A stretch of DNA of 64,000 bases, taken from NCBI RefSeq assembly GCF_016861655.1, contig NZ_BOLN01000004.1:1-64000 (forward strand). Direction: 5' to 3'. Source of the stretch: Levilactobacillus lanxiensis. Lineage in GTDB: Bacteria; Bacillota; Bacilli; Lactobacillales; Lactobacillaceae. Numbering within the stretch: position 1 is the stretch's first letter; every line of letters begins with the position of its first letter. Below are positions 14,167-48,677 of the stretch, piece by piece. The notes under the pieces are model-generated. The model made no database searches. It was not told the origin of the DNA and saw only the letters and a program-made list of their open reading frames with translations. The position numbers were made by a program, and so were the translations under genes.

Positions 14167-14177
14167 ATACGCAATTC

Positions 14178-14212
14178 AAATAGGACTGTGATTCTCGTTG
14201 CAGTCCTATTTC
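14178..14212 (+). terminator. Terminator hairpin after adhesin 3
   Basis: AAATAGGACTG (14178-14188) pairs perfectly with CAGTCCTATTT (14201-14211). The T tract is short, so termination strength is uncertain; on the minus strand an A/T tract also flanks it. Confidence 0.65.
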
Positions 14213-14396
14213 GTGTACCAGTAATTACTTAGCTAACCAACCTGAATGAGCGATCATTTGGCAGTCAAACGGTTCACCCCAGCAATATCTCTGGAATCAC
14301 CCGAAAAAATTGACATTCACCCCTAACTTCGCTAAAGTCAAACTAATAATTGCTCCAGACCATTTGTGTATTTGATAGAGAAAGTGGGGTCTTATG

Positions 14397-16361
14397 ATGG
14401 CAACAATCGTGAAACCGGAAGACCTGTTCGCCTTGCGTCCGCTGGCTCAACCAGTGAGTGATGGGCAGCGGGTGTACTACGTGGAGAGTCAACTAGACCA
14501 GCAGAAGAATGCCAGTCAAGCCGCCATTTATTCCGTCCAACTGGCGGATGGCAGTGATCGCCGGCGGTGGAGTCCGGCCGATGTGAGCGTCAACGAACTG
14601 GCACTAAGTCCGAGTCACCGCTATTTATCCTTCAGTGGCGTGGTCAATGAGCACGCCCAATTGTTCCTGGTCCCGCTCAACGGTGGGGCGCCGGAACAGA
14701 TCACGCGCGGGGATGCCGACATCAGCCAGCTGACCTGGGAAGCCAACACCGACGTGCTCTACTTTCAAACGACGACCGGCGCCAAGCAACCGGCAAAGGA
14801 TGCGCTCCCTAGCGTCCAGGTCGTCGACAAATTACAATACAAAATGAACGGCCGCGGCCTCTTACCACAAGGCCTGACGTATCAATGTATTCGCTACCAG
14901 TGTGCCAGCCGCGACCAATCCGTCGTGCTCGAACGCACGGACCCCTTTACCGTGACCGCAGCCAACGACCAGGGCCTCTTATTCTCAACGGAACGCCTGC
15001 CCGAAGACGAACACGATTTCAGCGAGGGCGTTTACTGGCATCCCTTCGATGGGACGGCCGACCGGCTCTTAAATGAAAAGCTGCCCGCGGGGTCTTTCGG
15101 CCAGGGACAGCTAGATGAAGACGGCCAACACGTGTTGATGTGGGGCCAGGACAATCACATCCCCAACGTCTCGCAATTTCACGCGTGGCTGGGCAACCTC
15201 ACGACCGGCGAATTGACCGACCTGACTGCACCGCGCGACGTGGAGGTCGGTGACATGCTGGCCATCGACAGCCAACAGCGACAATCCGGCCAGTTTGTGG
15301 CTTGGCTGACGCACAACACCTTTTTAACTTTGGAAAATGAACACGGGCGGTTAAGCCTGGTCAGTCAAAGCCTTGACGGCGATGCGCAACCGCGGACGTT
15401 GTTGGGTGGCGACCGGGCTATCACGGACTTTAGCGTGGTCGACCCGCAGACCATCGTCTTCACCGAGTCGACCATGACCAGTGTGAGCCGGTTAAAGGCC
15501 CTTAACGTCGCCACAGGCGAGGAACGGGAGCTGATTAACCCCAATGCCGTCTACGAGGCCAAACACGCTCTGGTGGCCGGTCAACGCTTCACCTTCAAGG
15601 GGGCGGCCGACTGGGACATCGAGGGCTGGTATTTCCCACCCGTTACGCCAGCGCCCCAACATCCCGCCGTGCTCTACGTTCATGGGGGACCGCAAGTCGA
15701 CTTCGGCTACGGCTTCTACCATGAGCTACAATTTCTCGCGGGCCAAGGGTATGGCGTCATCACCATCAATCCGCGTGGTGGCAACAGTTACGGCCAGGAC
15801 TTTGAGACGGCCGTCATCGGCCATTATGGCGAGGGCGACTTCGAGGACCTGATGCTGGGGACCGACGCGGCGCTGAAATTAGACCCGACGATTGACCCCA
15901 AGCAACTGTGCGTCACCGGTGGGTCTTACGGTGGCTTCATGACCAACTGGATTGAGACCCACACCAACCGCTTCGCCGCGGCCGTTACGCAACGCTCCAT
16001 TTCCAATTGGATCAGTTTCTACGGCACCAGCGATATCGGCTACTTTTTCACGCCATGGGAGCTCAAGCAGGACATGCACAACATCGACGTGCTCTGGAAA
16101 TTCTCGCCACTGGCCTACGTGCAAGACGCCACGACACCTATTCTGGTGCTCCACGGCGAGGAAGACCTGCGTTGTCCGACCACGCAAGGTGAGGAGTTCT
16201 TCGTCGGCCTAAAGGAAGCCGGGGTGGAAACACAATTGGTCCTGTTCCCGAAATCTAATCACGAACTATCCCGTTCTGGTCTGCCCAACCTGCGGATCGA
16301 ACGGTTGAATCGCATCAATCAGTGGTTCCAAGACCACTTACCAGCTAAGGAGGAAGGTTAA
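14397..16361 (+). CDS. S9 family serine peptidase (prolyl oligopeptidase/acylaminoacyl-peptidase type)
   Basis: About 654 residues; ATGs at 14394 and 14397 are both possible and AAAGTGGGGT favours the second. The N-terminal two thirds shows beta-propeller-like repeats (WSPADVSVNELALSPSHRYL and similar), followed by the alpha/beta hydrolase domain. The nucleophile is in GGSYGG (Ser near residue 510), the acid in HGEEDLRCP and the His in SNHELSRSG. No signal peptide, so it is cytoplasmic and expected to trim peptides, perhaps supplied by transporters such as DtpT. It forms an operon with proC, three bases downstream. Confidence 0.92.
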   Translation: MATIVKPEDLFALRPLAQPVSDGQRVYYVESQLDQQKNASQAAIYSVQLADGSDRRRWSPADVSVNELALSPSHRYLSFSGVVNEHAQLFLVPLNGGAPEQITRGDADISQLTWEANTDVLYFQTTTGAKQPAKDALPSVQVVDKLQYKMNGRGLLPQGLTYQCIRYQCASRDQSVVLERTDPFTVTAANDQGLLFSTERLPEDEHDFSEGVYWHPFDGTADRLLNEKLPAGSFGQGQLDEDGQHVLMWGQDNHIPNVSQFHAWLGNLTTGELTDLTAPRDVEVGDMLAIDSQQRQSGQFVAWLTHNTFLTLENEHGRLSLVSQSLDGDAQPRTLLGGDRAITDFSVVDPQTIVFTESTMTSVSRLKALNVATGEERELINPNAVYEAKHALVAGQRFTFKGAADWDIEGWYFPPVTPAPQHPAVLYVHGGPQVDFGYGFYHELQFLAGQGYGVITINPRGGNSYGQDFETAVIGHYGEGDFEDLMLGTDAALKLDPTIDPKQLCVTGGSYGGFMTNWIETHTNRFAAAVTQRSISNWISFYGTSDIGYFFTPWELKQDMHNIDVLWKFSPLAYVQDATTPILVLHGEEDLRCPTTQGEEFFVGLKEAGVETQLVLFPKSNHELSRSGLPNLRIERLNRINQWFQDHLPAKEEG

Positions 16362-16364
16362 GTT

Positions 16365-17168
16365 ATGAAAATTGGATTTATCGGCGTCGGCGGCATGGCC
16401 CAAGCCATTATCGGCGGACTGCTCAAGGCGAAAACGTTTGCCCCTAGCGACATCATCGTGCACAGTCATCGGCTTGAAAGCTATGGCCCTTATGCAAAAG
16501 CCCACGGCCTCCAAACAGCGGCCAGCAACGCGGATGTTGCGGCGGCTAGCGACCTGGTCGTCTTAGCCGTAACTCCCAACGTGGCCAGCGACGTGCTCCA
16601 GGAAATCGAAGCACAACTGGTTGACGGCCAAAAGACGTTGATCTCCATCGTTGCCGGGCTATCCCTGGCGAATATGGCCAACGTAGTGGGCGAGAACGTG
16701 CCAATTTTACGGACGCTGCCCAATGTGAACGTTGAGGTGGGTGCGGGGATGACCGCGGTGGCCGCCAACGCGCATTTGACCGGGGATGACCTGGCCGCAG
16801 CGTTACGCGTGTTCAACACGATTGGCTCCACGACGACGTTAGCCGAAGACCAATTCGGCGTCTTCAGCGCGCTGGCCGGGAGTTCACCAGCCTACATCGA
16901 CTTCTTCATCGACAGCCTGAGCCGCGCCGGAGTCAAGTATGGCTTAAGCAAGGACCAGGCCACAAAGATTGCGGCTCAAGCGACTTTAGGCTCCGCTAAA
17001 ATGGTTTTGGAAAGCGACAAAATTCCATTTGCCCTGATCGACCAAGTCGCCTCACCAGGTGGCAGTACGGTGGCCGGGTTACTGGCGATGGAAGAGGCTG
17101 GGCTGATGACGGCGGTGGTCAAGGGAATCGACGCCACCATCAAGCGCGACGCCGGCGGTCCAGCTTAA
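16365..17168 (+). CDS. proC: Pyrroline-5-carboxylate reductase
   Basis: 267 residues, the usual length. N-terminal Rossmann motif GFIGVGGMAQAIIGGL binds NADPH; the C-terminal domain carries the family signature around PGGSTVAGLLAMEEAG. It makes the last step of proline synthesis from P5C. ATG 16365 follows GGAGGAAGG that overlaps the end of the peptidase gene, so the two genes are co-transcribed; a peptidase linked to proline metabolism makes sense if the peptidase releases proline-containing peptides, but that is inference. Confidence 0.95.
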   Translation: MKIGFIGVGGMAQAIIGGLLKAKTFAPSDIIVHSHRLESYGPYAKAHGLQTAASNADVAAASDLVVLAVTPNVASDVLQEIEAQLVDGQKTLISIVAGLSLANMANVVGENVPILRTLPNVNVEVGAGMTAVAANAHLTGDDLAAALRVFNTIGSTTTLAEDQFGVFSALAGSSPAYIDFFIDSLSRAGVKYGLSKDQATKIAAQATLGSAKMVLESDKIPFALIDQVASPGGSTVAGLLAMEEAGLMTAVVKGIDATIKRDAGGPA

Positions 17169-17190
17169 AGCACCTTTGCGTGTTGTGTTG

Positions 17191-17393
17191 GTCGTTCGTT
17201 CCCGGCGGCGGGCTCAAGGCGCCCTGCTGTGGGGCCGGTTCCAGCCTGAAGGGCGGGCTTCCACCTCGACTTTGAGCCTGAGAAGCGGTCTCAAAGGTCG
17301 TCCTATGCTCTAAGCTGAGTGAGAAACCTCAGCTAAGACCATCGACACAGCTGGGCACCTTGGCCCGCCTCTGGTCACTTAGACGGGTTTGGT
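17191..17393 (+). repeat. Structured intergenic repeat, copy 1 (forward)
   Basis: GC-rich element downstream of proC. It contains hairpins TTTGAG...CTCAAA and AGCTGAG...CTCAGCT. Its skeleton (GCTGTGGGG, CCAGCCTGA, GGGCGG, CTCGACTTTGAGCC, TCTCAAAGGTCGTCC, GACACAGC) recurs in copy 2 on the other strand and partly in copy 3 at 26 kb. The stretch 17169-17821 has no supported gene. Confidence 0.75.
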
Positions 17394-17564
17394 GCTTTGT
17401 GCGTGGCCGATTAGCTGGTGTGTTTTGAGTGAATCAACAACGTTGATAGATGAATTAGCTGCAAGTGTTCTTAGTCACTATCAGATAGCGCCGTTAGTTT
17501 GTGGTAAGAATCATGCATGCCACCAAGGACCCAGACGACGGCAATACACGATGTTAGTCGGTTA

Positions 17565-17783
17565 GTTTGGCTGGGGTTCGGAGCCGGAGACAGACAAAAT
17601 GGGACCCGCTGTGTCAGTGGTGTTAGACCGGGGGACTTTTCCCGGCCTTACAGCACGGGACGAGCTTGGAGACGCTGGTTTTTGCGGCTTCAAGTCGAGC
17701 CGTAGGACCGCTCCTCAGGCCGAAGGCGGTCCCCATAGCGGGTCACGTTTTGGCGGTCGCAGGCGGAGAACCCCAGCCAAAAC
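17565..17783 (-). repeat. Structured intergenic repeat, copy 2 (reverse)
   Basis: Imperfect inverted repeat whose outer arms pair over about 45 bp (17565-17611 with 17737-17783; GGCTGGGGTTC against GAACCCCAGCC, GGGACCCGCT against AGCGGGTCAC). Inside are hairpins CCGGG/CCCGG and GGACCGC/GCGGTCC. Read on the minus strand it follows copy 1 closely (CTCGACTTGAAGCC, GTCTCCAAGCTCGTCC, GACACAGCGGG). Short reading frames across it are by-products of the high GC. Confidence 0.75.
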
Positions 17784-17821
17784 CATAACAGAATAAATAT
17801 CGCGTTTTGCAGTCTGGTGAG

Positions 17822-17850
17822 TTGCCTTTTTGGTCTATACCGATTATAAT
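17822..17850 (+). promoter_or_regulatory. nagA promoter with NagR-type operator in the spacer
   Basis: TTGCCT (17822-17827), 17 nt, TATAAT (17845-17850). The spacer holds the near-palindrome TTGGTCTATACCGATT (17830-17845), which matches the NagR/GntR dre consensus. Binding there would block RNA polymerase. The regulator is encoded two genes down. Confidence 0.8.
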
Positions 17851-17891
17851 AACAGTGTTGACTGAAGGTATAATTGATGAGGAGGAGACTC

Positions 17892-19034
17892 ATGAGTATT
17901 GTTTTAAAGCACGCGAAGATTTACACCGGTGACGAGGTTATTCCAGACGGGTTTATTCGTTTTGATCGTGAAATTGAAGCGGTTGGTCCCGTGGCTGATT
18001 TTCGACCATTGCCTGCCGATGAAATCCACGTGGTGACTGGCAAGACGATTGTTCCCGGATTTATTGACGTTCATAGCCATGGGGGCTACGGATATGATAG
18101 TATGGATGGGGACCCCGACCAAATTGATAAGATGGTTAACTTGATGTCCTTAGAAGGAATCACGTCCATCTTCCCAACCACGATGACCCAGTCTAACGAA
18201 GCCATTGACCACGCCATGCAAGGGATTGCGGTAGCCGCTGAACGGAATCCGTTGATTCAAGGCGTCCATTTGGAAGGGCCATTTATTGCGGCCATTTTCA
18301 AAGGAGCTCAGCCAGAAAAGTACATCAAGGATCCCGACGTTGCGCTGTTAGACCGCTGGAACAAGCTGTCCGGTGGTCGGGTCAAACTGATTACCTACGC
18401 GCCAGAAGACGACGGGGCCAAGAAGTTTGAAACCTACTGCTTAGCCAACGGCATCGTGCCATCTGTGGGGCATTCTAACGCCACGCGGGAACAATTATTG
18501 GAAAGCCGGGCCACCCATGTGACCCACTTGTACAACGCACAACGGGGCTTGCGGCACCGTGAACCCGGGGTTACCGGTCACGCCATGCTGGAAGACAGCC
18601 TGTTCTGTGAAATTATTTGTGATGGGTTCCACATCGTGCCCGACATGATCAAGTTGGCTTACGAGCAAAAGGGCCAACACCGGTTGGAACTAGTGACCGA
18701 TTCCATGCGGGCCAAGGGTATGCCAGAAGGCGTCAGTGAACTGGGTGGCCAAAAGGTGATCGTCAAGGACCGTCAAGCGCGGCTCGAGAGCGGTAACCTG
18801 GCTGGCTCCGTGCTCCGTTACGATGAAGCCTTCCGCAACGTCATTGCCTTCACCGGCTGTGACGTCAACGAAGCCGTGCAAATGAGTGCTGTGAACCAGG
18901 CCGAAGAGTTCGGCTTGACACAGAAGGGTAAACTGGAAGTAGGCCGCGATGCCGACTTAAACCTGTTGACTCGTGACCTGCACGTGGACACGACCTTCAG
19001 TTTGGGCCGGAATATGCAGGAATTAGTTAAATAA
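17892..19034 (+). CDS. nagA: N-acetylglucosamine-6-phosphate deacetylase
   Basis: 380 residues from ATG 17892, preceded by GAGGAGGAG. Amidohydrolase features: DVHSHGGYG (H-x-H metal site), the LEGPFI strand, GHSNAT and THLYNA histidines, and TDSMRAKG with the catalytic Asp near the C-terminal third. It converts GlcNAc-6-P to glucosamine-6-P and acetate, feeding amino sugars to glycolysis or wall synthesis. It is the first gene of a two-gene operon with its regulator and carries a NagR-type operator in its promoter. Confidence 0.95.
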   Translation: MSIVLKHAKIYTGDEVIPDGFIRFDREIEAVGPVADFRPLPADEIHVVTGKTIVPGFIDVHSHGGYGYDSMDGDPDQIDKMVNLMSLEGITSIFPTTMTQSNEAIDHAMQGIAVAAERNPLIQGVHLEGPFIAAIFKGAQPEKYIKDPDVALLDRWNKLSGGRVKLITYAPEDDGAKKFETYCLANGIVPSVGHSNATREQLLESRATHVTHLYNAQRGLRHREPGVTGHAMLEDSLFCEIICDGFHIVPDMIKLAYEQKGQHRLELVTDSMRAKGMPEGVSELGGQKVIVKDRQARLESGNLAGSVLRYDEAFRNVIAFTGCDVNEAVQMSAVNQAEEFGLTQKGKLEVGRDADLNLLTRDLHVDTTFSLGRNMQELVK

Positions 19035-19069
19035 AAATGTAGTTATTTTGAGAAGGGACGTTGGGTGCT

Positions 19070-19771
19070 GTGAGTTCACCGATTTATATTCAAATTCATA
19101 ATGACATTAAACGTGCAATTGAAGCCGGAAAATGGGCGGTAGGCGATCGAATTCCGTCCGAACGGGAGCTGTCTCGTGATTTTGATGTGAGTCGGATGAC
19201 GCTCCGTCAGGCCATTCAAACACTGGTGGATGAAGGAATCTTGGAACGCCAAGTGGGTTCTGGAACTTACGTGGCCAATCAAAAGGTTCAAGAAAAGATG
19301 TCCGGGGTGACCAGTTTTACCGATCTAATGTTGACCCAGGGCAAGCAACCCACCAGCAAGACCATTTCGTATCACGTGATGAATCCATCCTTGAGTGAGG
19401 CCGAAAAGCTGAAGCTCAACGAGGATGATCAGGTGCTGCGGATGGAACGGATTCGCTACGGCGACGATGTCCCAATTTGTTTTGAAGTGGCCACCGTACC
19501 AGAAAAATTGGTCGACGGCTTGAACAAGAAGGAAGTCACGAGCTCACTGTACCGGGCCTTGGAAGATAAGAAAAAGTTGAATCCAGGTAAGGCCCAACAG
19601 ACCGTCTCGGCCATGTCCGCCTCAGAACGGATTGCGGAATACCTGAATATCAAGCGGGGCGACGCTATTTTACGGTTGCGTCAGGTGACCTATCTGCAGG
19701 ATGGCACACCGTTTGAATATGTTCGGACGCAATACGTCGGCGAACGCTTTGAATTTTATTTGGAAAAATAA
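19070..19771 (+). CDS. nagR: GntR family regulator with UTRA domain (NagR-like)
   Basis: About 233 residues. N-terminal winged helix typical of GntR (GDRIPSERELSRDFDVSRMTLRQAI, then VGSGTYVA), and a C-terminal UTRA effector domain (RYGDDVPICFEVATVP, TYLQDGTPFEYVRTQY). This matches NagR/YvoA, which senses glucosamine- or GlcNAc-6-phosphate. GTG 19070 is preferred because AGAAGGGA lies 11 nt upstream; a TTG at 19061 is too near it. Located 35 nt after nagA. Likely targets: the nagA promoter site and perhaps the half-sites at 525-558. Confidence 0.9.
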   Translation: MSSPIYIQIHNDIKRAIEAGKWAVGDRIPSERELSRDFDVSRMTLRQAIQTLVDEGILERQVGSGTYVANQKVQEKMSGVTSFTDLMLTQGKQPTSKTISYHVMNPSLSEAEKLKLNEDDQVLRMERIRYGDDVPICFEVATVPEKLVDGLNKKEVTSSLYRALEDKKKLNPGKAQQTVSAMSASERIAEYLNIKRGDAILRLRQVTYLQDGTPFEYVRTQYVGERFEFYLEK

Positions 19772-19785
19772 GCTAGGAATGCGAA

Positions 19786-19835
19786 AAGTGCCTCACAAAG
19801 GTTAGCTGGAATGCTAACGCGTTTGTGAGGCACTT
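19786..19835 (-). terminator. Strong stem-loop after nagR, T tract on the minus strand
   Basis: AAGTGCCTCACAAA (19786-19799) pairs with TTTGTGAGGCACTT (19822-19835), with an inner GTTAGC/GCTAAC helix. The better U tract (after the stem in the minus direction) suggests it stops reverse transcripts coming from the glycosyltransferase; it may act both ways. Confidence 0.7.
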
Positions 19836-19855
19836 GTTGTAAGCGGGGTGATGTG

Positions 19856-20362
19856 ATGGTCACAATTCGATTGGCCCGAGCCGATGATGATTTTCAGGCG
19901 GTCGCCCAACTTTACTGGACCGTTTGGCAGGACACCTATCGTGGTCTGTTGCCGGCAGAATTCTTGGCCGAGCTAACACCGGCGACTTGGCATCCCGAAC
20001 GGCACTGGCGTCGTCAGTTACTAGCGTTTGATGACCAACACCAGTTAGTGGGGACCTGTGCCTTTGGTCCGGCCCGCGATGCCCAGTTTGCTGGGTGGGG
20101 CGAGATCAATTCCATCTATCTGTTGCCAACGGTGCAGCACCAGGGGCTTGGCCGCCAATTGATGCAGCGAGCCATGACCGCCCTGCAGGCGCAAGCGTTT
20201 GACCGCCTCGTCCTGTGGGTGCTGGTGACTAATGAGCCGGCGCGTCAGTTTTACCAGCGCTGTGGCTTCGTGGCCACGGCCCGCGTGAAGACCCAGGGGC
20301 CTATCCGCGAGGTAGCGTACGTTTGGCCTGCTGCCGCACGAGGTGCAGGTAGCGGGGAATGA
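19856..20362 (+). CDS. GNAT family N-acetyltransferase
   Basis: 168 residues from ATG 19856, about 7 nt after AAGCGGGG. The acetyl-CoA site is VQHQGLGRQLM (Q-x-x-G-x-G) after the typical beta-4 strand INSIYLLP, and the C-terminal half has NEPARQFYQRCGFV, characteristic of GNAT. The substrate is unknown. Its last 62 nt overlap, on the opposite strand, the 3' end of the glycosyltransferase gene. Confidence 0.88.
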   Translation: MVTIRLARADDDFQAVAQLYWTVWQDTYRGLLPAEFLAELTPATWHPERHWRRQLLAFDDQHQLVGTCAFGPARDAQFAGWGEINSIYLLPTVQHQGLGRQLMQRAMTALQAQAFDRLVLWVLVTNEPARQFYQRCGFVATARVKTQGPIREVAYVWPAAARGAGSGE

Positions 20363-21044
20363 CCGCGATCCGCTTGAGACGCTTGGGTTCCTTCAGGGTC
20401 CGGTAGAACCATTCCAAATGGTGGTCTTGCCAGAACTTGGGTGCCCGAATCACGGCGCCGGCCAGAACGTCAAAACTACCGCCGACCCCCATCCAGAGGC
20501 CCTTGGTCGTGTGCCGGTACTGGTGAATGAACTGTTCTTGCTTGGGAAAACCCAACGCAGCGAAGACCATGTCCGGTTGTTTGGCCGTGATGTCGGCGAC
20601 GATGGGGGCTTCGTCCTGGAAGTAGCCATCGTGAATGCCGGCAACCTCTAAGCCCGGGTAGTCCCGCGCCAGAATCGGTTTGAGCTGGGCGATGACCTCG
20701 GGCTTGGCGCCTAGGAAATAGGCGGAGCGGTGCTGGTCACTGCCCCAGGTGAGCAGATCCTGTAAGGTATCGAACCCAGTGATGCGTTCGGGAAGGGGCT
20801 GCTTTAAAATTTTAGCCCCGTCCAGGATGCCGACCCCGTCCGGTGTGATGAAGTCTGCGCCTAAGATCAGGTCGCGGTAAGCCGCGTGTTCATGGGCGTA
20901 CATCGCAATTTCCGGATTGGCGGTCACCACGAAGGTATTTTGCTGCTGGGTGATGCGCTGCTGTAAGACGGGTAGTAAGTCCGCCGCAGTGGTCTTGACG
21001 AAGGGTAAGTCAAGCACGGTGACGGTGGGAAATGTGGTTTGCAT
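20301..21044 (-). CDS. tagA: WecG/TagA/CpsF family glycosyltransferase (GT26)
   Basis: 247 residues; the start at 21044 has AGAGGAG upstream, while an upstream in-frame ATG lacks one. Motifs: VTANPEIAMYA near the N-terminus, TPDGVGI (family D-G-x-G), LGFPKQE and GVGGSFDVLAG with RAP, and a basic C-terminal tail that in TagA contacts the membrane. TagA adds ManNAc to lipid-linked GlcNAc at the start of wall teichoic acid synthesis. It stands alone here, convergent with the GNAT gene. Confidence 0.9.
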   Translation of the reverse strand: MQTTFPTVTVLDLPFVKTTAADLLPVLQQRITQQQNTFVVTANPEIAMYAHEHAAYRDLILGADFITPDGVGILDGAKILKQPLPERITGFDTLQDLLTWGSDQHRSAYFLGAKPEVIAQLKPILARDYPGLEVAGIHDGYFQDEAPIVADITAKQPDMVFAALGFPKQEQFIHQYRHTTKGLWMGVGGSFDVLAGAVIRAPKFWQDHHLEWFYRTLKEPKRLKRIAVIPRYLHLVRQQAKRTLPRG

Positions 21045-21119
21045 AGGGGGACTCCTCTCAAGATTGGTACGAGAGCGAATTAAGCCCCCGTTACCGCAGT
21101 CAACCACGCCCGTTTAAAA

Positions 21120-21300
21120 ACGGACGCTTGTGAGAACCACACCCCATGGTATGGCGACCACAATTTGCTTAGATACAGCGCTAGCCTACGAATAGGACTT
21201 ATCCGCTAATTACCAAAGCCTTTTAGGTCCGCAGGTTGCCAGACGGACTTGTTTCTTATAGGGTTGCTAACCCCTTGGCTAGAATATTTTTAGCCGCGTT
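21120..21300 (-). ncRNA. Probable omega RNA (reRNA) region at the tnpB 3' end
   Basis: TnpB proteins use an RNA made from the 3' end of tnpB and the element's right end. The 140-nt non-coding tail here folds (for example GTCCG...CGGAC around 21220-21246 and CCGTTT...AAACGG at 21110-21123). Exact ends and guide cannot be read from sequence alone. Confidence 0.45.
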
Positions 21301-22509
21301 ATGGTCACGCACATGAAACGTCCCACAACTAGGACACGTCCATTCGCGGTCAGCTAACGTCAACTTATTCTTGCCGACCATGACATGTCCACAATGGCTA
21401 CAAGTTTGTGTCGTATTACGGGGATTGATAGTCAAGAATTTTCTGCCATATAAGTCAGCTTTATAAGCCAACATACTCAGTAAAGTTCGCCAACCAACGT
21501 CTGAGATACTCATCGCCAAGGCGTGATTCCGCAACATATTTTTACTTCGCAGTTCTTCAGCTACGACTAAATCGTGGTTTTTGATCAAGGTCGTAGAGAC
21601 GTGGTGTAGAAAGTTTTTACGTTGATTGGCAACTTTAAGTTGTAGCTTGGCTATTTGTAGCCGTTGCTTTTGATAATTCTTTGATTCCGATAACCGTCGT
21701 TGGCTCTTTTTAGCTCGTCTGGCCCGTCGTGACAGTTTCCGCTGAGCTTTAGCCAGCTTTCCTTTAATCATCCGGTAATAGCGCGGATTATCAATCACCT
21801 GTCCATTGGAATCTGTCAGGAAATTATCAAGATTCAAATCAATGCCGACTTTAGATTCAATCTCAGGCTGCTTAGCAACAAATGGATGTTCCGAGCCAAT
21901 CTGCATGGACACAAAATAATGACCCACAGCGTCCATTGAAACCGTTGTCGTCCCGATTCTAATGTCATTAGCTCGGTTTAAAATCTTCGATGGAAGTCCT
22001 CTGAAACGGAGACGTCCCAGCTTGGGTAACCACAGATGGTGGGTATCAGTTAATCTGACGCTTCCATTACTCATAGTTGGTTCCAATACCTTGGCCCCAT
22101 AGAGGCAGGACGTTTGATAAGTCTGCGTATAACCACGCTTATGAAACTTAGGCGTCCCCGCCTGATGAACCTGGCGGAATAGTTTCCAAGCAGTTTTGTA
22201 ATTCTTGATAGCGTTGGCTTTCATCAAACTGTCAAAGTCTGGGTGATTGAGCCATCCATGAATATTGGAGATAGCAGTTGATGGCTTCTTCAGACGCTCA
22301 GTCAAATCAGCAATTCGCTTCAAAACAAGCGTGATTGGCGTTTTAACTTTTTTCAGCCAGAATAAATCGTTGTTCATCCCGTTCATTTCGTTATAAATGA
22401 AGCGACTCGCATCGCTGTTACGTTTGATCAGACGCTTCTGTTCGGTTGAAGGAAAAACACGGACCTTAACCCCATAATGATAAGGTAATTGTGCCATCGT
22501 TTTTGTCAT
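21256..22509 (-). CDS. tnpB: RNA-guided endonuclease TnpB of IS605 family
   Basis: 417 residues. The start at 22509 follows AAAAGGAGG; an earlier ATG is not supported. RuvC-like active residues are present: D224 in VGIDLNLDNF, E318/E319 in VVAEEL and D402 in RDHNAAKNI, with a zinc ribbon C370-x2-C373 ... C392-x2-C395. The catalytic set and length are intact, so it may be an active nuclease guided by the adjacent omega RNA. The N-terminal OrfB-type domain is also complete (FPSTEQKRLIKRN). Confidence 0.93.
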   Translation of the reverse strand: MTKTMAQLPYHYGVKVRVFPSTEQKRLIKRNSDASRFIYNEMNGMNNDLFWLKKVKTPITLVLKRIADLTERLKKPSTAISNIHGWLNHPDFDSLMKANAIKNYKTAWKLFRQVHQAGTPKFHKRGYTQTYQTSCLYGAKVLEPTMSNGSVRLTDTHHLWLPKLGRLRFRGLPSKILNRANDIRIGTTTVSMDAVGHYFVSMQIGSEHPFVAKQPEIESKVGIDLNLDNFLTDSNGQVIDNPRYYRMIKGKLAKAQRKLSRRARRAKKSQRRLSESKNYQKQRLQIAKLQLKVANQRKNFLHHVSTTLIKNHDLVVAEELRSKNMLRNHALAMSISDVGWRTLLSMLAYKADLYGRKFLTINPRNTTQTCSHCGHVMVGKNKLTLADREWTCPSCGTFHVRDHNAAKNILAKGLATL

Positions 22510-22605
22510 AAACTGCCACCTCCTTTTGCTTGATAGTAAGCATATCATATGAGTATACTGTATCCATAGTAAGTTGTCTTATAATAATATTTATGGAGGT
22601 AACGT

Positions 22606-23025
22606 ATGAGTAAAAGTAATGGCGGAGAAATCCACGAACGAGGCTATGTTTACAACTTTCATTTTCACCTGGTCTGGGTTACCAAGTATCGGCATGAAGC
22701 ATTTACAACACCTAAGCTGGTCGCTGAAATGACCGACATTCTAACGAAGATAGCCCGACTGAACGAAGTGACCATTGAGCAGATGGAGGTAATGCCTGAT
22801 TATATCCACTTACTACTAAGCTTTAAGCCCAAGTACGCGCCAACCAATGTTGTCAAAGCCTTCAAGGGCGGTTCGGCTCGCTTATTCTTTGAATTGCATC
22901 CAGAGCTAAAAGCTCAAAAGTCCTGGGGTGGGCATCTCTGGTCACCTAGTTACTTCATGAGTACCCTGGGTGATATGAGCAAGACGACCATGGAAAACTA
23001 TATTGCTAATCAGCGAAAGGAATAG
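22606..23025 (+). CDS. tnpA: IS200/IS605 Y1 transposase TnpA (HUH motif altered)
   Basis: 139 residues, normal size, starting at ATG 22606 after TGGAGG. N-terminal YNFHFHLVWVTKYR and catalytic Tyr in MENYIANQ are as in IS200-like TnpA. The metal-binding HUH motif usually reads P-D-H-h-H-L-L; here it is PDYIHLLL, so the first His is Tyr (a TAT codon, one base from CAT). This may impair single-strand transposition. The gene is otherwise full length and divergent from tnpB. Confidence 0.9.
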   Translation: MSKSNGGEIHERGYVYNFHFHLVWVTKYRHEAFTTPKLVAEMTDILTKIARLNEVTIEQMEVMPDYIHLLLSFKPKYAPTNVVKAFKGGSARLFFELHPELKAQKSWGGHLWSPSYFMSTLGDMSKTTMENYIANQRKE

Positions 23026-23177
23026 TAGCATTCATCTCTTGTTTGAAAGCAAGGGGATTCTGCCTAACTCATATTAAATAGTATGACGCTCTGTTTGTTT
23101 CATGCTAAAATAAACGTATTGAAATTAAAAATGAAACGTGATAATTCAGTTCGAAAACCAGCTAAGGAGTAGCTATT

Positions 23178-24644
23178 ATGACGAATTTGTATCCTGACGA
23201 CAGTATGACTCTGCATACGGATGCCTATCAGATCAATATGATTCAGACTTATTACGAACAAGGCATCGCTGACAAGCGCGCCGTCTTTGAAGTCTTTTTC
23301 CGAGACATGCCGTTTAAAAACGGTTACGCGGTATTTGCTGGCTTGGAACACATTGTTCATTATATCCAAAATCTACATTTTTCCCAAACAGATATTGATT
23401 ACTTACGGGAAGCTGAAGATTATTCCGAAGATTTTCTAAACTATCTCGCCAATTTTAAATTCCGTGGCTCGATTCGTTCGGCCGTTGAAGGGGAACTGGT
23501 TTATGCCCACGAACCCTTGTTACAGGTCGAAGGGCCATTAGCTGATTGCCAATTGGTTGAAACGGCCATTTTGAACATCATCAATTATCAAACGCTGATT
23601 GCCACCAAGGCCGCGCGGATTCGTTCCGTGGCCGGCGATGACGCCCTGATGGAATTTGGGACGCGGCGGGCTCAGGAATTTGATGCCGCTATCTGGGGTA
23701 CCCGGGCGGCCTTTATCGGTGGTTTCGATGCCACGTCTAACGTCCGTGCTGGCAAGATTTTTGGTATCCCGATTAGCGGGACCCACGCGCACGCCCTGGT
23801 CCAGACCTACGGCAACGATTACGATGCCTTCATGGCCTACGCCAAGACCCACCGCGACTGTGTCTTCCTGGTCGATACCTACGATACGTTACGCAGTGGG
23901 GTGCCCAACGCCATTAAGGTGGCCAAGGAACTCGGCGACCAGATCAATTTCCAAGGGGTCCGCATCGATTCCGGGGATATGGCCTACCTGTCCAAACGGG
24001 TTCGGCAAAAACTGGATGAAGCGGGCTTCCCGAACGCTAAGATTTACGCATCCAACGATCTGGATGAAAAGACGATTCAAAGTCTCAAGATGCAGGACGC
24101 CAAGATTGACGTCTGGGGGATTGGGACCAAGCTGATCACGGCCTTTGACCAACCCGCTCTGGGTGCCGTTTACAAGATGGTTGCCATCGAAGACGAGACT
24201 GGCAAGATGAAGGGAACCATCAAGCTGTCGAACAACGCTGAAAAGGTTACGACGCCGGGCAAGAAGCAGGTTTGGCGAATCACCAAGAAGGCGGATGGCA
24301 AGACCGAAGGGGATTACGTGGCCTTGGTCAACGAAGATCCGCGGAATGAAGACTCGCTGTTCATGTTCCATCCCAGCTTTACCTACATTAACAAGACCGT
24401 GAACGACTTTAATGCGCGACCCATTTTGCAAGATATCTTTGATCAGGGTGAACTGGTTTACAAGTTGCCGACCTTGTCGGCGGTGCGGGACCGGTGTCGT
24501 GGTGCCTTAGCGAACCTGTGGCCAGAGTACAAGCGGGACCTGAATCCACAAAAGTATCCCGTGGACCTGTCGCAAGATTGCTGGGACCACAAGATGGCCA
24601 TCATCAAAGACATTCACAGTTACGTTCAAACCATGCCCGAGTAA
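23178..24644 (+). CDS. pncB: Nicotinate phosphoribosyltransferase
   Basis: 488 residues. ATG 23178 follows AAGGAG. Family marks: LHTDAYQINMIQTYYEQG at the N-terminus, MEFGTRRAQ, SGTHAHALVQ with the phosphorylated-His region, and the phosphate-binding RIDSGDMAYLSK. It forms nicotinate mononucleotide from nicotinate and PRPP (ATP-assisted), the first step of the salvage route to NAD. It is followed 30 nt later by nadE, so the pair forms a salvage operon. Confidence 0.95.
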   Translation: MTNLYPDDSMTLHTDAYQINMIQTYYEQGIADKRAVFEVFFRDMPFKNGYAVFAGLEHIVHYIQNLHFSQTDIDYLREAEDYSEDFLNYLANFKFRGSIRSAVEGELVYAHEPLLQVEGPLADCQLVETAILNIINYQTLIATKAARIRSVAGDDALMEFGTRRAQEFDAAIWGTRAAFIGGFDATSNVRAGKIFGIPISGTHAHALVQTYGNDYDAFMAYAKTHRDCVFLVDTYDTLRSGVPNAIKVAKELGDQINFQGVRIDSGDMAYLSKRVRQKLDEAGFPNAKIYASNDLDEKTIQSLKMQDAKIDVWGIGTKLITAFDQPALGAVYKMVAIEDETGKMKGTIKLSNNAEKVTTPGKKQVWRITKKADGKTEGDYVALVNEDPRNEDSLFMFHPSFTYINKTVNDFNARPILQDIFDQGELVYKLPTLSAVRDRCRGALANLWPEYKRDLNPQKYPVDLSQDCWDHKMAIIKDIHSYVQTMPE

Positions 24645-24674
24645 GCCCGAGCAAATAAATTAGGGGGCAGAGTT

Positions 24675-25505
24675 ATGCGTGCCATGCAAAAAGAAATTAT
24701 TGCGGCGTTGAAGGTACAGCCCACCATTGATCCGGCGACTGAAGTTCGGCGGAGCGTGGACTTTTTAAAGAGCTACCTCCAACACTATGATTTTATGAAG
24801 ACCTTAGTGTTAGGGATTTCTGGCGGCCAGGATTCAACCTTGGCCGGCATCCTGTGTGAACAGGCGGTCACGGAGCTACGCCAAGAGACCGGCGACAGCG
24901 ACTACCGCTTCATTGCGGTGCGGTTGCCTTACGGCGAACAGGCCGATGAGGATGATGCCATGATGGCCATCGACTTCATGGGTGCCGACGAGGTGGAACG
25001 GGTAAACATTCAACCGGCTACCGACGCGATGGTGGCGGCCGTTTCAGCCAACCACGAAAACGTGAGTGACTTTAACAAAGGCAACATCAAGGCGCGGCAA
25101 CGGATGATTGCCCAGTACGCGATTGCCGGGGTCCGCTCCGGTGCTGTTGTCGGGACGGATCACGCCGCGGAAGCCGTGACAGGGTTCTACACCAAATATG
25201 GGGATGGCGCCACGGATATTTGCCCAATTTGGCGGCTGGATAAGCGTCAGGGGGCGGCCATGTTGACCTACCTTGGTGCGCCGGAACACCTGTACAAGAA
25301 GATTCCAACGGCTGATTTGGAAGAAGACCGGCCAGCCTTGCCCGATGAGGCAGCGCTGGGCGTGCGTTACGAAGACATTGACGACTACCTGGAAGGCCGG
25401 ACCGTCAGTGACACTGCGGCAGAACGCATCGAGAACTGGTACCGGAAGACCGCGCACAAGCGCCACTTACCGGTCAACGTTTACGATACATTCTGGCAAG
25501 ACTAA
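24675..25505 (+). CDS. nadE: NH3-dependent NAD synthetase
   Basis: 276 residues, the ammonia-dependent short form without a glutaminase domain. The ATP-pyrophosphatase P-loop is SGGQDS, followed by [27 protein letters not shown] and [12 protein letters not shown]. It amidates deamido-NAD to NAD. ATG 24675 has AGGGGGCAG upstream. Co-transcribed with pncB. Confidence 0.96.
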
Positions 25506-25523
25506 TTTGGAGGCACCAAGACT

Positions 25524-25958
25524 ATGCAAAAAAATAATATGAACGGCTACATCAAGATTCTCTCGGGCGTGTTACAAACGACCGAAGAGGGTGCTGGCAC
25601 CATGAATGATGATTTTGAAAAAATGCGCAACGCCATCGACAACGACACGGTCGGTGAGTTAAGCCAAGTCGACCTGCAAAAGGTTGCCGATAATTTCCAA
25701 CGGGGAACCGACGCCTACGAAGACAACTTGAACAAGCTTGAACAGGCCAGTGTGCCCGTTCGCGTTTTGGGCAAGCACAAGTCCTTGGTGGCCGCTTACC
25801 GGACCTACACGGACGCTTGCCAATCCATGACGGACAGCATTGACGTGGAACACCAAGCAGTCAATGCTGACGCCTTCAACGCGGCAGAGTCCACGCAAGA
25901 AAATGCCATGGAAAAAGTCACGGCCGCAACACAACGGATCATGACGAGTCCCATGTAA
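25524..25958 (+). CDS. Hypothetical protein, helical
   Basis: 144 residues, not recognised. It is mostly predicted helix, rich in Asp, Asn, Gln and Ala, with no membrane segment or signal. ATG 25524 has TTGGAGGC upstream; an internal ATG at 25602 has a weaker site and would give a 118-residue form. It follows nadE by 18 nt and ends at a terminator, so it belongs to the pncB-nadE transcript, without showing that it acts in NAD metabolism. Confidence 0.75.
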   Translation: MQKNNMNGYIKILSGVLQTTEEGAGTMNDDFEKMRNAIDNDTVGELSQVDLQKVADNFQRGTDAYEDNLNKLEQASVPVRVLGKHKSLVAAYRTYTDACQSMTDSIDVEHQAVNADAFNAAESTQENAMEKVTAATQRIMTSPM

Positions 25959-25970
25959 TGGCATTAAATG

Positions 25971-26006
25971 AAAGGGTCGCTTCACAGCTTGTGGGGTGAC
26001 CTTTTT
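25971..26006 (+). terminator. Terminator of the pncB-nadE operon
   Basis: AAGGGTC (25972-25978) pairs with GACCTTT around an inner CACAG...TGTGG helix, followed by TTTTT. Confidence 0.8.
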
Positions 26007-26040
26007 GCTTGCGGTAATTCATCGTGGCCGCTGGCTAGCA

Positions 26041-26049
26041 TGGTATAAT
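26041..26049 (+). promoter_or_regulatory. Extended -10 promoter in front of repeat copy 3
   Basis: TGGTATAAT is a perfect extended -10 element (TGnTATAAT). The -35 region is weak. Transcription would start near 26056, at the left edge of the structured repeat. Confidence 0.6.
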
Positions 26050-26055
26050 GGTGCA

Positions 26056-26345
26056 AGACAATGTCGTTCCCGACGGCGGATTCAAGGTGTCCCGCTGTGG
26101 GGAACGGCTCCAGCCGGGTTAAGCCATCGTTGACAGTGCCTCCGGGATGGTGAAAATGAGACCGGTTCGCTGTGGGCGCCCGCCTGGAGCCAAAGGGCGG
26201 TCTCCAGGCTTACTTTGAGCCGCTGAGAAACGCATCTCAAAGATAGCAATGACCTTAGTGGTTTCACCACTAAGGTCATTCCCACGGCTGAGCTCATTTT
26301 CACCATCCCTGTGGCTAACGCTGGTTTAGCCGCGGCATCGTCGGA
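26056..26345 (+). ncRNA. Structured repeat copy 3, candidate non-coding RNA or tex leader
   Basis: GC-rich non-coding DNA between nadE operon and tex. A 16-bp perfect helix (26145-26160 with 26293-26308) encloses three hairpins: GCCTGGAG...CTCCAGGC, TTTGAG...CTCAAA, and a 14-bp hairpin 26248-26261/26267-26280. The skeleton matches copies 1 and 2 at 17 kb. No T-box or known riboswitch core is visible. It could be a free ncRNA, a leader of tex, or a DNA-level repeat. Confidence 0.55.
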
Positions 26346-26461: not shown

Positions 26462-28654
26462 ATGGCAACTACCCACGAAACAGTGTTAAGCGACCTGGCT
26501 AAGCCGGTTCAGCAACAACTGAGCCAGTACCGGGTCCAACAGATTCAAGCCGTGTTGACACTGTTAGACGAGGGCAATACGGTGCCCTTCATTGCGCGGT
26601 ATCGGAAGGAACGGACGGGCTCACTGGATGAAGTGGCCATTCGCGACATTGAAGACGAAGCACACCGCCTGCTGAAGTTGAATCAGCGGCGGCAAGAAGT
26701 TTTAAAGATTATTGCTGAGCAAGGAAAATTGACGCCTGCACTGAAACAAAATCTGGCCCACGCCACGGTTCTGCAACAGGTTGAGGATCTTTACCTGCCT
26801 TACAAGCAGAAGCGTCGGACCAAGGCCACGGTTGCCCGGGAGGCCGGGTTGGCGCCGTTAGCACAATGGCTATTGACCTTTCCGGCGTCTGGCTTAACCG
26901 CTAAGGCCCAACAGTTTGTGGCGCCCACCAAGGAATTGCCGGATGTCGCAGCCGTTTGGGCCGGGGTTCACGAAATATTGGCCGAAACGTTTAGTGAGCA
27001 GGCGGCGTTTCGGGAATGGATTCGCAAGTATACTTGGCAACATGGTGAATTGACCAGCAAGCTCAAGCGGGGCGCGGCTGACGACGATGAACAGCAGGTT
27101 TACGCCACCTACTATGACTTCAGTCAGAGCTTGAAGCAATTGCCACCATACCGGGTTTTGGCCATCAACCGGGGCGAACGGGAGAAAATCTTGTCCGTTG
27201 GCATCTCAATCGACCCAGCGTCCATCTTGCAGTACGGGCATTTTCGCCTGGTTGGCCAGCACCAGGGTCCAGCCGTGGCCAAGGTTAAGGACGCCTTTGC
27301 GGACGCCTACAAGCGATTCTTGGGTCCGGCCATTGAGCGGGAACTCCGCCGGCAATTGACGGACAAGGCGGATGAACATGCCATTCAGGTCTTTGGCAAT
27401 AACCTGTATCACTTGTTGATGCAGGCCCCACTGAAGGGGAAGGTCGTCATGGGCTTTGATCCCGCGTACCGGACGGGCTGCAAGCTGGCCATCATGGATC
27501 CCAACGGGCGTTTTCTCGCCAAGCAAGTGATTTATCCGCACAAGCCAGCGAAGGCCAAGGACCGGGCAGCCGCGGGTCCCGCGTTTAAGAAATTGCTCGA
27601 GGACTATCACGTTGAAATGATTGCCATCGGGAATGGGACTGCCAGCCGGGAATCCGAAGAGTTTGTGAGTGGCATCTTAAAGACGCTGGATCATCCGGTC
27701 TACTATGTGCTGGTCAACGAGGCCGGTGCATCGGTCTACTCGGCCAGTGCCAATGCCCGCGCAGAGTTTGCGGACTTTCACGTCGAGGAACGGTCGGCCG
27801 TCAGCATTGGCCGGCGCCTGCAGGACCCTCTGGCCGAATTGATCAAAATTGACCCCAAGGCAGTCGGGGTTGGCCAGTACCAACACGATGTGCCCGAGAA
27901 GTCCTTGGATGAACAACTGGACCGGGTCGTCGAAACGGCGGTCAACCAGGTCGGGGTCAACGTGAATACGGCGAGTCCGGAGTTGTTGACCCATATTTCT
28001 GGGCTGACGGCGACCACCGCGCAAAACATTGTGACCTATCGCAATGACAACGGGAGCTTTGCGGCCCGACAAGAGTTGAAGAAGGTCCCACGGCTAGGGC
28101 CGAAAGCCTACCAACAGGCGGTTGGCTTCCTGCGAATCATTGATGGTCGCGAACCACTGGACAACACGGATATTCACCCGGAAAGTTATCCAGTGGCCCG
28201 ACAATTGTTACAGGAAATGGGCACGGACCAAGCCATTGGTCAGCCGAAGTTGCAACAACAGTTGGCCCAACTCAATCAAACCCAGTGGGCAGACAAGTTA
28301 GACGTTGGCGCGGCAACCCTGAGTGACATCGTTGCCAGCCTACGGAAACCTGGTCGGGACCTGCGGGATAGTATGCCAGCGCCACTGCTACGCCAAGATG
28401 TGTTGACCATGGCAGATTTGAAACCGGGGATGGAGCTGCAAGGCACCGTCCGCAACGTGGTCGACTTCGGGGCGTTCGTAGATATTGGGGTCAAGCAGGA
28501 TGGGTTGGTCCACATTTCCCAGTTGGCCGACCATTACGTGAGTGATCCCAGCACGGTCGTGACGATTGGGGATGTGGTCACGGTCTGGGTGCTGAGCGTC
28601 GATGAGAACCGGCAACGGATTCAACTGACGATGCGAGCTGACAATCATGACTAA
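26462..28654 (+). CDS. tex: Tex family transcription accessory RNA-binding protein
   Basis: 730 residues, full length. ATG 26462 follows GGAGGGG. Order of domains: Tex N-terminal helical part (VPFIARYRKERTG), a YqgF/RuvC-like fold (GFDPAYRTGCKLA), a helix-hairpin-helix (GLTATTAQNIVTYR and VPRLGPKAYQQ), and a C-terminal S1 domain (GTVRNVVDFGAFVDIGVKQ). It binds nucleic acids and is a general transcription/stress factor. Its end overlaps the next gene by 8 nt. Confidence 0.95.
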   Translation: MATTHETVLSDLAKPVQQQLSQYRVQQIQAVLTLLDEGNTVPFIARYRKERTGSLDEVAIRDIEDEAHRLLKLNQRRQEVLKIIAEQGKLTPALKQNLAHATVLQQVEDLYLPYKQKRRTKATVAREAGLAPLAQWLLTFPASGLTAKAQQFVAPTKELPDVAAVWAGVHEILAETFSEQAAFREWIRKYTWQHGELTSKLKRGAADDDEQQVYATYYDFSQSLKQLPPYRVLAINRGEREKILSVGISIDPASILQYGHFRLVGQHQGPAVAKVKDAFADAYKRFLGPAIERELRRQLTDKADEHAIQVFGNNLYHLLMQAPLKGKVVMGFDPAYRTGCKLAIMDPNGRFLAKQVIYPHKPAKAKDRAAAGPAFKKLLEDYHVEMIAIGNGTASRESEEFVSGILKTLDHPVYYVLVNEAGASVYSASANARAEFADFHVEERSAVSIGRRLQDPLAELIKIDPKAVGVGQYQHDVPEKSLDEQLDRVVETAVNQVGVNVNTASPELLTHISGLTATTAQNIVTYRNDNGSFAARQELKKVPRLGPKAYQQAVGFLRIIDGREPLDNTDIHPESYPVARQLLQEMGTDQAIGQPKLQQQLAQLNQTQWADKLDVGAATLSDIVASLRKPGRDLRDSMPAPLLRQDVLTMADLKPGMELQGTVRNVVDFGAFVDIGVKQDGLVHISQLADHYVSDPSTVVTIGDVVTVWVLSVDENRQRIQLTMRADNHD

Positions 28655-48091: not shown

Positions 48092-48163
48092 GGCGGGGCA
48101 AAGCGGTGGTCGCTTGCTAGGGTCATATCCTAGATAGTAGTGGTTCAATTCCACTCTCCGCAA
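48092..48163 (+). tRNA. Phage tRNA with anticodon CAT (Met or Ile2)
   Basis: D-arm AAGC/GCTT, anticodon stem CTAGG/CCTAG around loop GTCATAT (anticodon CAT), T-arm AGTGG/CCACT with loop TTCAATT. Acceptor GGCGGGG pairs at six of seven positions with CTCCGCA; the outermost pair is G-A. Confidence 0.75.
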
Positions 48164-48677
48164 TTAAACATTTAAGCTGGTGTATAAGGGACTGATACTC
48201 CCGCCCAGTTGCGTGGCTGTAAGATGGACGATAAGCCGTCTGCTAGGGATACCTGGTGGATTGTTAAGCCCCAGTGGCTGGCCTGAAAGAAAGGGCTTCG
48301 CATGTCACGTAGGTAACAAGTTGGAAGACAAATGCATTGACGGATTCGTGCTCACAATACCTCATCTTCAGTCAACGATAGTGTAGTAACTATTGGAACC
48401 ACGGAGAAGAACTAATAAGAGCATTGGTAGTTGAACTGGCAACACCGGGTATAAGAATTCAGTCAAGTACAAGTAGGGGTAATCTACGTTACAAAATATG
48501 CAGACTATTTGAAAATGCCTATATTCCCTGAAAGTTGCCGGTATCATTCCGGCTCGGACCATTAAAAGCGTTGACAGCGTGTGGGTCGCTCCTACACGTA
48601 GGCGTTAACGCTCGTTCGGTTGCACAAAATGTCTGAAACTAAAGTGATCTACGCAAACCAATGCGGAATGTTTATGT
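48164..48677 (+). other. Unexplained structured non-coding stretch in the prophage
   Basis: 514 nt with no gene of credible length. Many stable hairpins: GGGACTGATACTCCC, GACG...CGTC, AAGCCC...GGGCTT with nested CCAG/CTGG, GCCGG TATCATT CCGGC (a T-arm-like fold at 48537-48553) and AGCGTT...AACGCT. It may hold degenerate tRNAs or a distinct RNA. Confidence 0.5.

What the first reader, a model, noticed from the sequence alone, without database searches (positions are those of the whole stretch)
17191..26345. A family of structured intergenic repeats, three copies in 9 kb
Copies at 17191-17393 (+), 17565-17783 (-) and 26056-26345 (+) share an ordered skeleton: GCTGTGGGG, CCAGCCTGA, GGGCGG, an ACTTTGAGCC...TCTCAAAG hairpin, a TCGTCC stretch, a variable second hairpin, and GACACAGC. 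Loop sequences differ while pairing is kept (for example AGCTGAG/CTCAGCT, CCGGG/CCCGG and a 14-bp hairpin in the same place). This suggests selection on structure. Copies 1 and 2 face each other. I know no named family for it.
Basis: partly seen in the sequence, partly recalled or inferred. Interest (0 to 1): 0.85.

Follow-up and report, generated by a model that had tools for sequence, protein, structure and literature searches.

The report
Polarised palindromic repeats that copy flanks
Levilactobacillus chromosomes carry a dense family of structured palindromic repeats, for which no name was found, that point away from the neighbouring gene and often carry a backwards copy of that gene's edge on their far side, which suggests an unusual fold-back way of inserting or growing.

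Summary
The three copies belong to three related subfamilies (II, III, I); copy 3 is a type I element nested in a type II remnant. The genome is a Levilactobacillus (closest L. wangkuiensis). The first 400 kb of contig C1 holds 90 copies longer than 120 nt; 500-700 per genome is an extrapolation. 33 of 34 other genus members match, weaker relatives occur in three other Lactobacillaceae genera; none was found in plasmid or phage searches. Covariation is extreme (0 of 500 shuffles), but G.U pairs are scarce and lack the sense-strand bias of tRNA, so the structure looks DNA-level. Polarity is nearly absolute: a gene end lies within 75 nt of the 5' side in 45 of 93 copies, of the 3' side in 0 of 93. 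The 5' flank, in some copies including the gene's last codons, recurs inverted beyond the 3' side. In sister species the compared sites keep their orientation (66 of 66 pairs), sometimes with another subfamily's core (10 of 66 pairs, 6 sites). Best reading: chromosomal palindromic elements that insert or grow by self-primed fold-back synthesis and swap cores. The enzyme is unknown.

The parts
17191..17393 (+). copy 1: type II element (model match 17198-17378), 30 nt after the stop codon of the pyrroline-5-carboxylate reductase gene (16365-17168)
17565..17783 (-). copy 2: type III element (model match 17584-17766), its 5' side towards the nagA-like gene (17892-19034)
17767..17854 (.). original 5' flank of copy 2: upstream region of the nagA-like gene including TATAAT; most of it is present in L. 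cerevisiae, which has no element at this site
   Evidence: row L061
17500..17580 (.). degenerate inverted copy of 17767-17854 on the 3' side of copy 2 (88 alignment columns, 69% identity)
   Evidence: row L061; 43-47 nt stretch also
17394..17564 (.). spacer between the facing copies 1 and 2; 17400-17562 occurs once in the genome; absent at this site from species without elements there
26066..26116 (+). 5' remnant of a type II element (model 1-50), left part of the reported copy 3
26113..26336 (+). type I element nested against the type II remnant (model match 26138-26315; outer arms GGGTTAAGCC / GGTTTAGCC), upstream of the tex-like gene (26462-28654)

Best explanation
It is a family of non-coding, chromosomal palindromic DNA elements (core about 115-140 nt with three hairpins on a basal stem, 180-240 nt with arms), in three subfamilies. 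SHOWN: high copy number, shared core, covariation, strong polarity (5' side towards a gene boundary, 3' side towards the interior of the intergenic region), an inverted copy of the 5' flank on the 3' side in a part of the copies, stable orientation with exchange of cores between sister species, loss of the core with arms left behind, tandem copy-number differences, one clean lineage-specific insertion. INFERRED: the element enters or grows as a single strand that folds on itself; its 3' arm pairs with its 5' arm and primes DNA synthesis back into the target strand, giving flank - element - inverted flank. Decay of the inverted flank leaves the 'spacers'. Later events (recombination between shared arms, or opening of the hairpin) swap cores within the arms, so the orientation set by the first insertion persists. 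The same copying between arms would keep Watson-Crick pairing without wobble. The protein that handles the element is not identified.
For: Polarity: gene end <=75 nt on the 5' side in 45 of 93 copies, on the 3' side 0 of 93; gene start 25 vs 2. Inverted flank: last 45 nt of the adjacent gene (stop included) against the reverse complement of the 3' flank, 95 distinct gene ends: mean 15.99 vs permutation mean 12.81, sd 0.24, largest of 5000 permutations 13.68; score >=20 in 23 of 95 vs 1.3 expected, direct-strand control 1 of 95. Stricter, without the last 12 nt and without ends holding element arms: 10 of 94 vs 1.2 expected at >=20, mean 13.81 vs 12.97, above all 5000 permutations. With 150-nt flanks 65 of 248 copies exceed the 99% point of same-type mismatched flanks, 2.5 expected. 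Core exchange: 66 pairwise orthologous comparisons, 66 same orientation, 10 different type, 6 distinct sites; two more cases aligned. A 338-nt insertion in G000 absent from both sisters. Spacer absent from species without elements at that site. No RNA-like strand bias of wobble pairs.
Against: With element ends masked by 50 nt and strict scoring no inverted excess remains (own mean 18.4 vs 18.1; 0 of 93 at >=32, mismatched 8 of 8452), so the inverted copy is shown only near the element. The purely coding test weakens with longer ORFs: 66 ends with ORF >=200 codons give mean 13.67 vs 12.96, sd 0.27, and some of 5000 permutations exceed it (7 vs 0.8 expected at >=20). 183 of 248 copies do not exceed the same-type control; window copy 1 is weak (score 16, 8 nt). 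In the one clean insertion the inverted flank is badly decayed and a 14-18 nt imperfect direct repeat, like a target-site duplication, is seen (by eye). No fresh insertion with a near-perfect inverted flank was found. No enzyme is linked: Y1 transposase and reverse transcriptase are patchy in the genus.
Confidence: 0.45

Rival explanations
1. A conventional non-autonomous transposon (MITE- or REP-like) moved in trans by a transposase, which prefers gene borders; inverted flanks are a by-product.
For: High copy number, terminal inverted arms (type I GGGTTAAAC...GTTTAACCC), nesting of one type in another, recent amplification of type II (86-93% identity to the window copy among the listed full-length matches), one insertion with a 14-18 nt imperfect direct repeat.
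Against: No copy in 72,556 plasmids (types I and II) or 50,697 phages (type I) at blastn sensitivity; Y1_Tnp absent from G012, whose 1174 first-look candidates are among the highest of the genus; no fixed target duplication seen; inverted copies reaching into coding ends.
Confidence: 0.27
2. The elements insert into palindromes that were already there (terminators, older elements), so flanks pair because the target was a hairpin.
For: Type II and III cores sit inside type I arms; some flanks contain terminator-like hairpins (by eye); insertion sequences are reported to target REP palindromes (PMC1525189, seen in the search listing only).
Against: Paired flanks run into the last codons of some genes; L. 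cerevisiae has a 19-nt joint without the palindrome at the copy 1/2 site; the clean insertion lies beside, not inside, a terminator-like palindrome (by eye).
Confidence: 0.13
3. Palindromes grow after insertion: replication stalls at the hairpin and the new strand copies the opposite arm outwards into the flank (quasi-palindrome template switching), independent of how the element arrived.
For: Strict Watson-Crick covariation with few wobble or A.C pairs; gapped, decayed inverted flanks of varied length.
Against: Growth should add copies of either flank; polarity is 45 vs 0 for gene ends. Elements lie on both strands in each 100 kb of C1 (15/8, 14/10, 13/16, 9/5 minus/plus), so replication direction alone cannot set it.
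Confidence: 0.2
4. A structured RNA element (3' UTR stabiliser, terminator or riboregulator) kept by selection on the transcript.
For: Cloverleaf-like fold and covariation; about half of the copies lie within 75 nt after a stop codon.
Against: Low wobble with no sense bias, unlike tRNA; equal sense and antisense placement; copies before start codons (25 of 93 within 75 nt); core exchange at the same site; no Rfam match at the copies. Transcription was not testable.
Confidence: 0.08

Closest known systems
REP / BIME / REPIN sequences with TnpA-REP (RAYT)
   Same: Hundreds of palindromic chromosomal copies just after stop codons, facing pairs, possible single-strand recognition (family features partly recalled; starts of abstracts in listing).
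   Different: REPs are 20-40 bp (abstract start of PMC3733652 in listing); these are 180-240 nt branched elements with private inverted flanks; the Y1 transposase family is missing from G012 and 11 other of the 35 genus genomes.
Bacterial MITEs (RUP, BOX, Correia, ERIC/RU, bcr1; recalled)
   Same: Small, non-coding, terminal inverted arms, high copy, intergenic.
   Different: Branched covarying core shared between subfamilies, core exchange within arms, inverted rather than only direct copy of the flank. A term search in the review PMC10969869 found no Lactobacill*, hairpin or inverted duplication in its text.
Integron attC sites (recalled, not tested)
   Same: Imperfect palindromes with conserved unpaired bases, acting as folded single strands.
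   Different: No array or cassette context noticed (not searched for); larger branched fold; scattered at gene borders.
Fold-back inversions in yeast and human (PMC7467729, PMC10622511, PMC3907307: starts of abstracts in listing only)
   Same: Inverted duplication of sequence next to a hairpin or break through fold-back priming.
   Different: Those are rearrangements; here the product is a dispersed repeat family.

Membership tests
REP/REPIN | short (20-60 nt) single hairpin | tested here: not met
   180-240 nt branched elements
REP/REPIN | associated Y1 (TnpA-REP) transposase in bearing genomes | tested here: not met
   PF01797 hits in 23 of 35 genus genomes; none in G012, which is rich in elements
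REP/REPIN | GTAG/CGTC foot motif | not tested
   not searched for
MITE | terminal inverted repeats | tested here: met
   type I ends GGGTTAAAC/GTTTAACCC, read by eye in many high-scoring copies, degenerate in others
MITE | direct target-site duplication of fixed length | tested here: inconclusive
   one clean insertion with an imperfect 14-18 nt direct repeat; direct-strand flank scores show no general excess (mean 19.1 vs 18.1, 2 of 93 high)
MITE | related autonomous transposon with the same ends | not tested
   only Y1_Tnp and RVT_1 were surveyed, without looking at ends
Rfam RNA families | score above a curated threshold | tested here: not met
   no hit at the copies at gathering; 17100-17850 only two low hits at E<=5; copy 3 was not searched at the lax threshold
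Selected RNA structure | G.U pairs frequent on the sense strand | tested here: not met
   4.5% given strand, 6.2% other; tRNA 8.5% sense, 2.5% antisense
Integron attC | integrase and cassette context | not tested
   no search made

The most novel reading that the evidence does not exclude
A new class of bacterial mobile DNA that inserts with near-absolute polarity by single-strand joining to a target 3' end followed by self-primed fold-back synthesis, so that each insertion carries an inverted copy of its 5' flank, and whose copies keep evolving by swapping cores within fixed arms.
Probability: 0.33. Interest if true: 0.9.

Novelty: new variant of a known kind. Interest (0 to 1): 0.75.

Why it matters
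It would be among the densest repeat families in a bacterial chromosome (about one copy per 4-5 kb in the 400 kb sampled on C1), in food bacteria of the L. brevis group, with no name found. The near-absolute polarity and the inverted copy of the neighbouring gene's edge are not what ordinary cut-and-paste or copy-and-paste transposition leaves. It also warns that strong covariation without wobble can arise at DNA level and be mistaken for a selected RNA.

Tried and rejected
IS200/IS605 (Y1) as the mover: an IS605-type pair lies in the window between the copies (21256-23025), but Y1 is absent from element-rich G012. Reverse transcription: RVT_1 is patchy, 10 of 35 genus genomes. Facing pair plus spacer as one mobile unit: rejected, because pairs mix subfamilies, the one spacer searched is unique in the genome and flank-to-flank matches found were short (154 rows, the 59 printed being 25-73 nt, many in type I arm sequence). 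Inverted flank running hundreds of bases: not supported under strict scoring with masking. Replication-strand bias: none clear in C1. A first tRNA wobble yardstick failed on parsing (one search ended in an error after the element counts; one search used 2 tRNAs) and was replaced by minimum-energy folds (48 tRNAs). Autonomous version with a gene inside: none noticed among the C1 hits; no dedicated search made. A first indel search on joined stretches missed gaps bridged by BLAST and was replaced by anchor mapping.

Rows dropped and limits: 5 of 55 type II/III and 1 of 35 type I sequences were left out of the model alignments because the core start or end looked misplaced. The doubtful first hairpin (6 of 31 pairs) was left out of the G.T/A.C count. 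For type I one covariation measure, further pair types, is reached by 50 of 500 shuffles. 104 gene ends were thinned to 95 distinct; one top row there (C1 75002) is a false gene end made of a type I arm, and others include element ends, hence the stricter rerun. (77 of 248) used mismatched flanks of mixed types, which favours own pairs; the same-type control gives 65 of 248. The 66 pairs come from three pairwise comparisons of the same region, so sites are counted up to three times; clusters with unequal numbers (26, of which 10 have none in the other genome) or failed mapping (6) are outside them, and one of the six exchange sites (C1 about 208.5 kb) did not map back in the reverse direction. 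Of the sites with presence/absence differences I aligned four (C1 about 238.1, 317.9 and 348.0 kb, and one G026 site). The 248 copies are enriched for copies resembling the window's; the 93 copies come from C1 (90) and the window (3), contiguous regions, not a random draw. Confidence was lowered from 0.5 to 0.45 (novel case 0.35 to 0.33).
Full report
WHAT WAS CHECKED. The three reported copies exist. They fall into three alignable subfamilies: type I (copy 3), type II (copy 1), type III (copy 2). Rfam has nothing at these places at its gathering scores, and only two low hits over copies 1-2 at E<=5. In the first 400 kb of contig C1, nhmmer profiles of the three types found 101 hits (43 II, 39 I, 19 III); 90 are longer than 120 nt. 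The first 120 kb of C4 has only 5 hits, so 500-700 copies per genome is an extrapolation from two contiguous regions.

WHERE IT OCCURS. A scan with the NagA protein named the genus Levilactobacillus, nearest L. wangkuiensis (100% of 380 residues) and L. mulengensis (99%). Model R2 (type I) over 295 genomes of the order matched 10: 3 Levilactobacillus, 6 genomes in three other genera of the same family (best 3e-9; more than one match in five of them) and one genome of another family at 4e-4 that may be chance. One of these genera is Lapidilactobacillus, judged by a contig of the same length, 120,336. Distant blastn found no copy in 72,556 plasmid records (types I and II) or 50,697 phage records (type I); type II in phages and type III in either were not searched.

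STRUCTURE. The core is a basal stem closing three hairpins; two of them share a GAGCC...GGTCTC motif with a conserved bulged base (read by eye). Compensatory double changes occur at 21 of 31 and 21 of 38 predicted pairs; no shuffle of 500 reaches the covariation score. The structures were predicted from these same alignments, which favours them over the slid controls, and for type I one measure (further pair types) is reached by 50 of 500 shuffles. The changes are almost purely Watson-Crick: G.T 0.40% and A.C 1.28% in II/III, G.T 1.11% and A.C 1.66% in I. In minimum-energy folds, wobble is 4.5% on the given strand, 6.2% on the other and 10.3% in shuffled sequence, against 8.5% sense and 2.5% antisense for 48 tRNAs. 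This is not the signature of an RNA selected on the given strand; a weak preference for the opposite strand is possible.

POLARITY. With a simple ORF caller, in 93 copies a gene end lies within 75 nt of the element's 5' side 45 times and of its 3' side never; a gene start 25 times against 2. The adjacent gene is equally often sense or antisense (46 vs 47). Neighbours within 600 bp in C1 face each other in 15 of 21 cases and are never back-to-back. The window pair follows this rule.

INVERTED FLANKS. In a part of the copies the unique sequence on the 5' side is repeated, inverted and decayed, on the 3' side. With 100-nt flanks, own pairs outscore other pairs of the same type (means 20.1 vs 14.4, 23.0 vs 16.0, 25.4 vs 14.0 for I, II, III; own best of its row in 12 of 35, 9 of 39, 12 of 19). 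With 150-nt flanks and a same-type control, 65 of 248 copies exceed the 99% point, 2.5 expected (20 of 94 I, 19 of 94 II, 26 of 60 III); in the earlier mixed-type comparison (77 of 248) the median outer extent was 75 nt and identity 74%, arms included. Using only the last 45 nt of the neighbouring gene, 95 distinct gene ends give a mean of 15.99 against 12.81 (sd 0.24) in 5000 permutations, maximum 13.68; 23 of 95 score at least 20 against 1.3 expected and 1 for the direct strand. Some of those ends include element arms. A stricter rerun leaves out the last 12 nt and such ends: 94 ends, mean 13.81 vs 12.97 (sd 0.22, above all 5000 permutations), 10 vs 1.2 expected at 20 or more; with ORFs of at least 200 codons 66 ends, mean 13.67 vs 12.96 (sd 0.27, exceeded by some permutations), 7 vs 0.8 expected. 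So copies of true coding ends are shown for a minority of copies. Masking 50 nt around elements with strict scoring leaves no excess, so long inverted copies are not shown. In the window, copy 2 shows it well: 17767-17854 next to the nagA-like gene, including its TATAAT, has a degenerate inverted copy at 17500-17580 (row L061). Copy 1 shows only an 8-nt match, score 16 against a median of 14 for others. In L. cerevisiae the same site is a 19-nt joint without elements or palindrome.

DYNAMICS. L. wangkuiensis (G012) and L. mulengensis (G026) are 92% and 91% identical to G000 in the tex gene. Over about 160 kb the three pairwise comparisons give 66 comparable element pairs: 66 in the same orientation, 10 with different subfamilies, which are 6 distinct sites, one of them mapping in one direction only. 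Two further cases aligned base by base show type II or II/III cores sitting between the same type I arms that hold a type I core in a sister species. Other differences are loss of the core with arms left, and a tandem array of 3, 2 and 1 copies. One clean lineage-specific insertion was found among the four presence/absence sites that I aligned: 338 nt in G000 absent from both sisters, a type II element with extra flanking DNA and an imperfect 14-18 nt direct repeat. At the tex site the ancestor apparently had type I and type II together; G000 and G012 lost most of type II, G026 lost most of type I (inference).

MECHANISM. The facts that need explaining together are near-absolute polarity, the inverted flank, arms that differ between copies yet pair, and wobble-free covariation. 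Fold-back synthesis explains all four: the element's 3' arm pairs with its 5' arm and primes copying of the target strand. That step is inferred. Core exchange is most simply recombination between shared arms; it also explains why different subfamilies occupy the same site in the same orientation. I put this at 0.45 (0.5 before the stricter coding test). A conventional transposon with unusual side effects, later palindrome growth, insertion into existing hairpins and an RNA function follow in that order. Y1 transposases and reverse transcriptases do not track the elements.

KNOWN OR NEW. Paper searches listed no description of such a family in Levilactobacillus. In the stem-loop survey PMC2267715, passages found by term search mention one Lactobacillus, L. 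johnsonii. Most subscription papers are not held, so absence from print is not shown. By kind it is a small palindromic repeat, a variant of the REP/MITE world; the insertion signature, if confirmed by fresh insertions, would be new.

Noticed in passing
window 21256-22548 (-) and 22606-23025 (+): An IS605-type TnpB (OrfB, Cas12f1-like domain) and an IS200-like TnpA lie in the window between copies 2 and 3; Y1 genes are patchy in the genus.
   Followed up: partly
window 19843-20319: A GNAT acetyltransferase gene region of 477 nt present in G000 and L. wangkuiensis is replaced by 13 nt in L. mulengensis.
   Followed up: no
window 48152-48683: A ROOL RNA (RF03087, 130.7 bits) ends directly at a tRNA gene at 48679-48752.
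   Followed up: no
G000:C4:76966-77523: A reverse-transcriptase domain in a 360-aa open frame; such genes are sporadic in the genus.
   Followed up: no
G012:C3 about 114037-114703 (joined-stretch position 14037-14703): Three head-to-tail type II elements, period about 245 nt, against two in L. mulengensis and one in G000.
   Followed up: partly
L241 (G280:C5): In another Lactobacillaceae genus a weak R2 match (32.7 bits) sits in a very long palindrome with a repeated hairpin unit.
   Followed up: no
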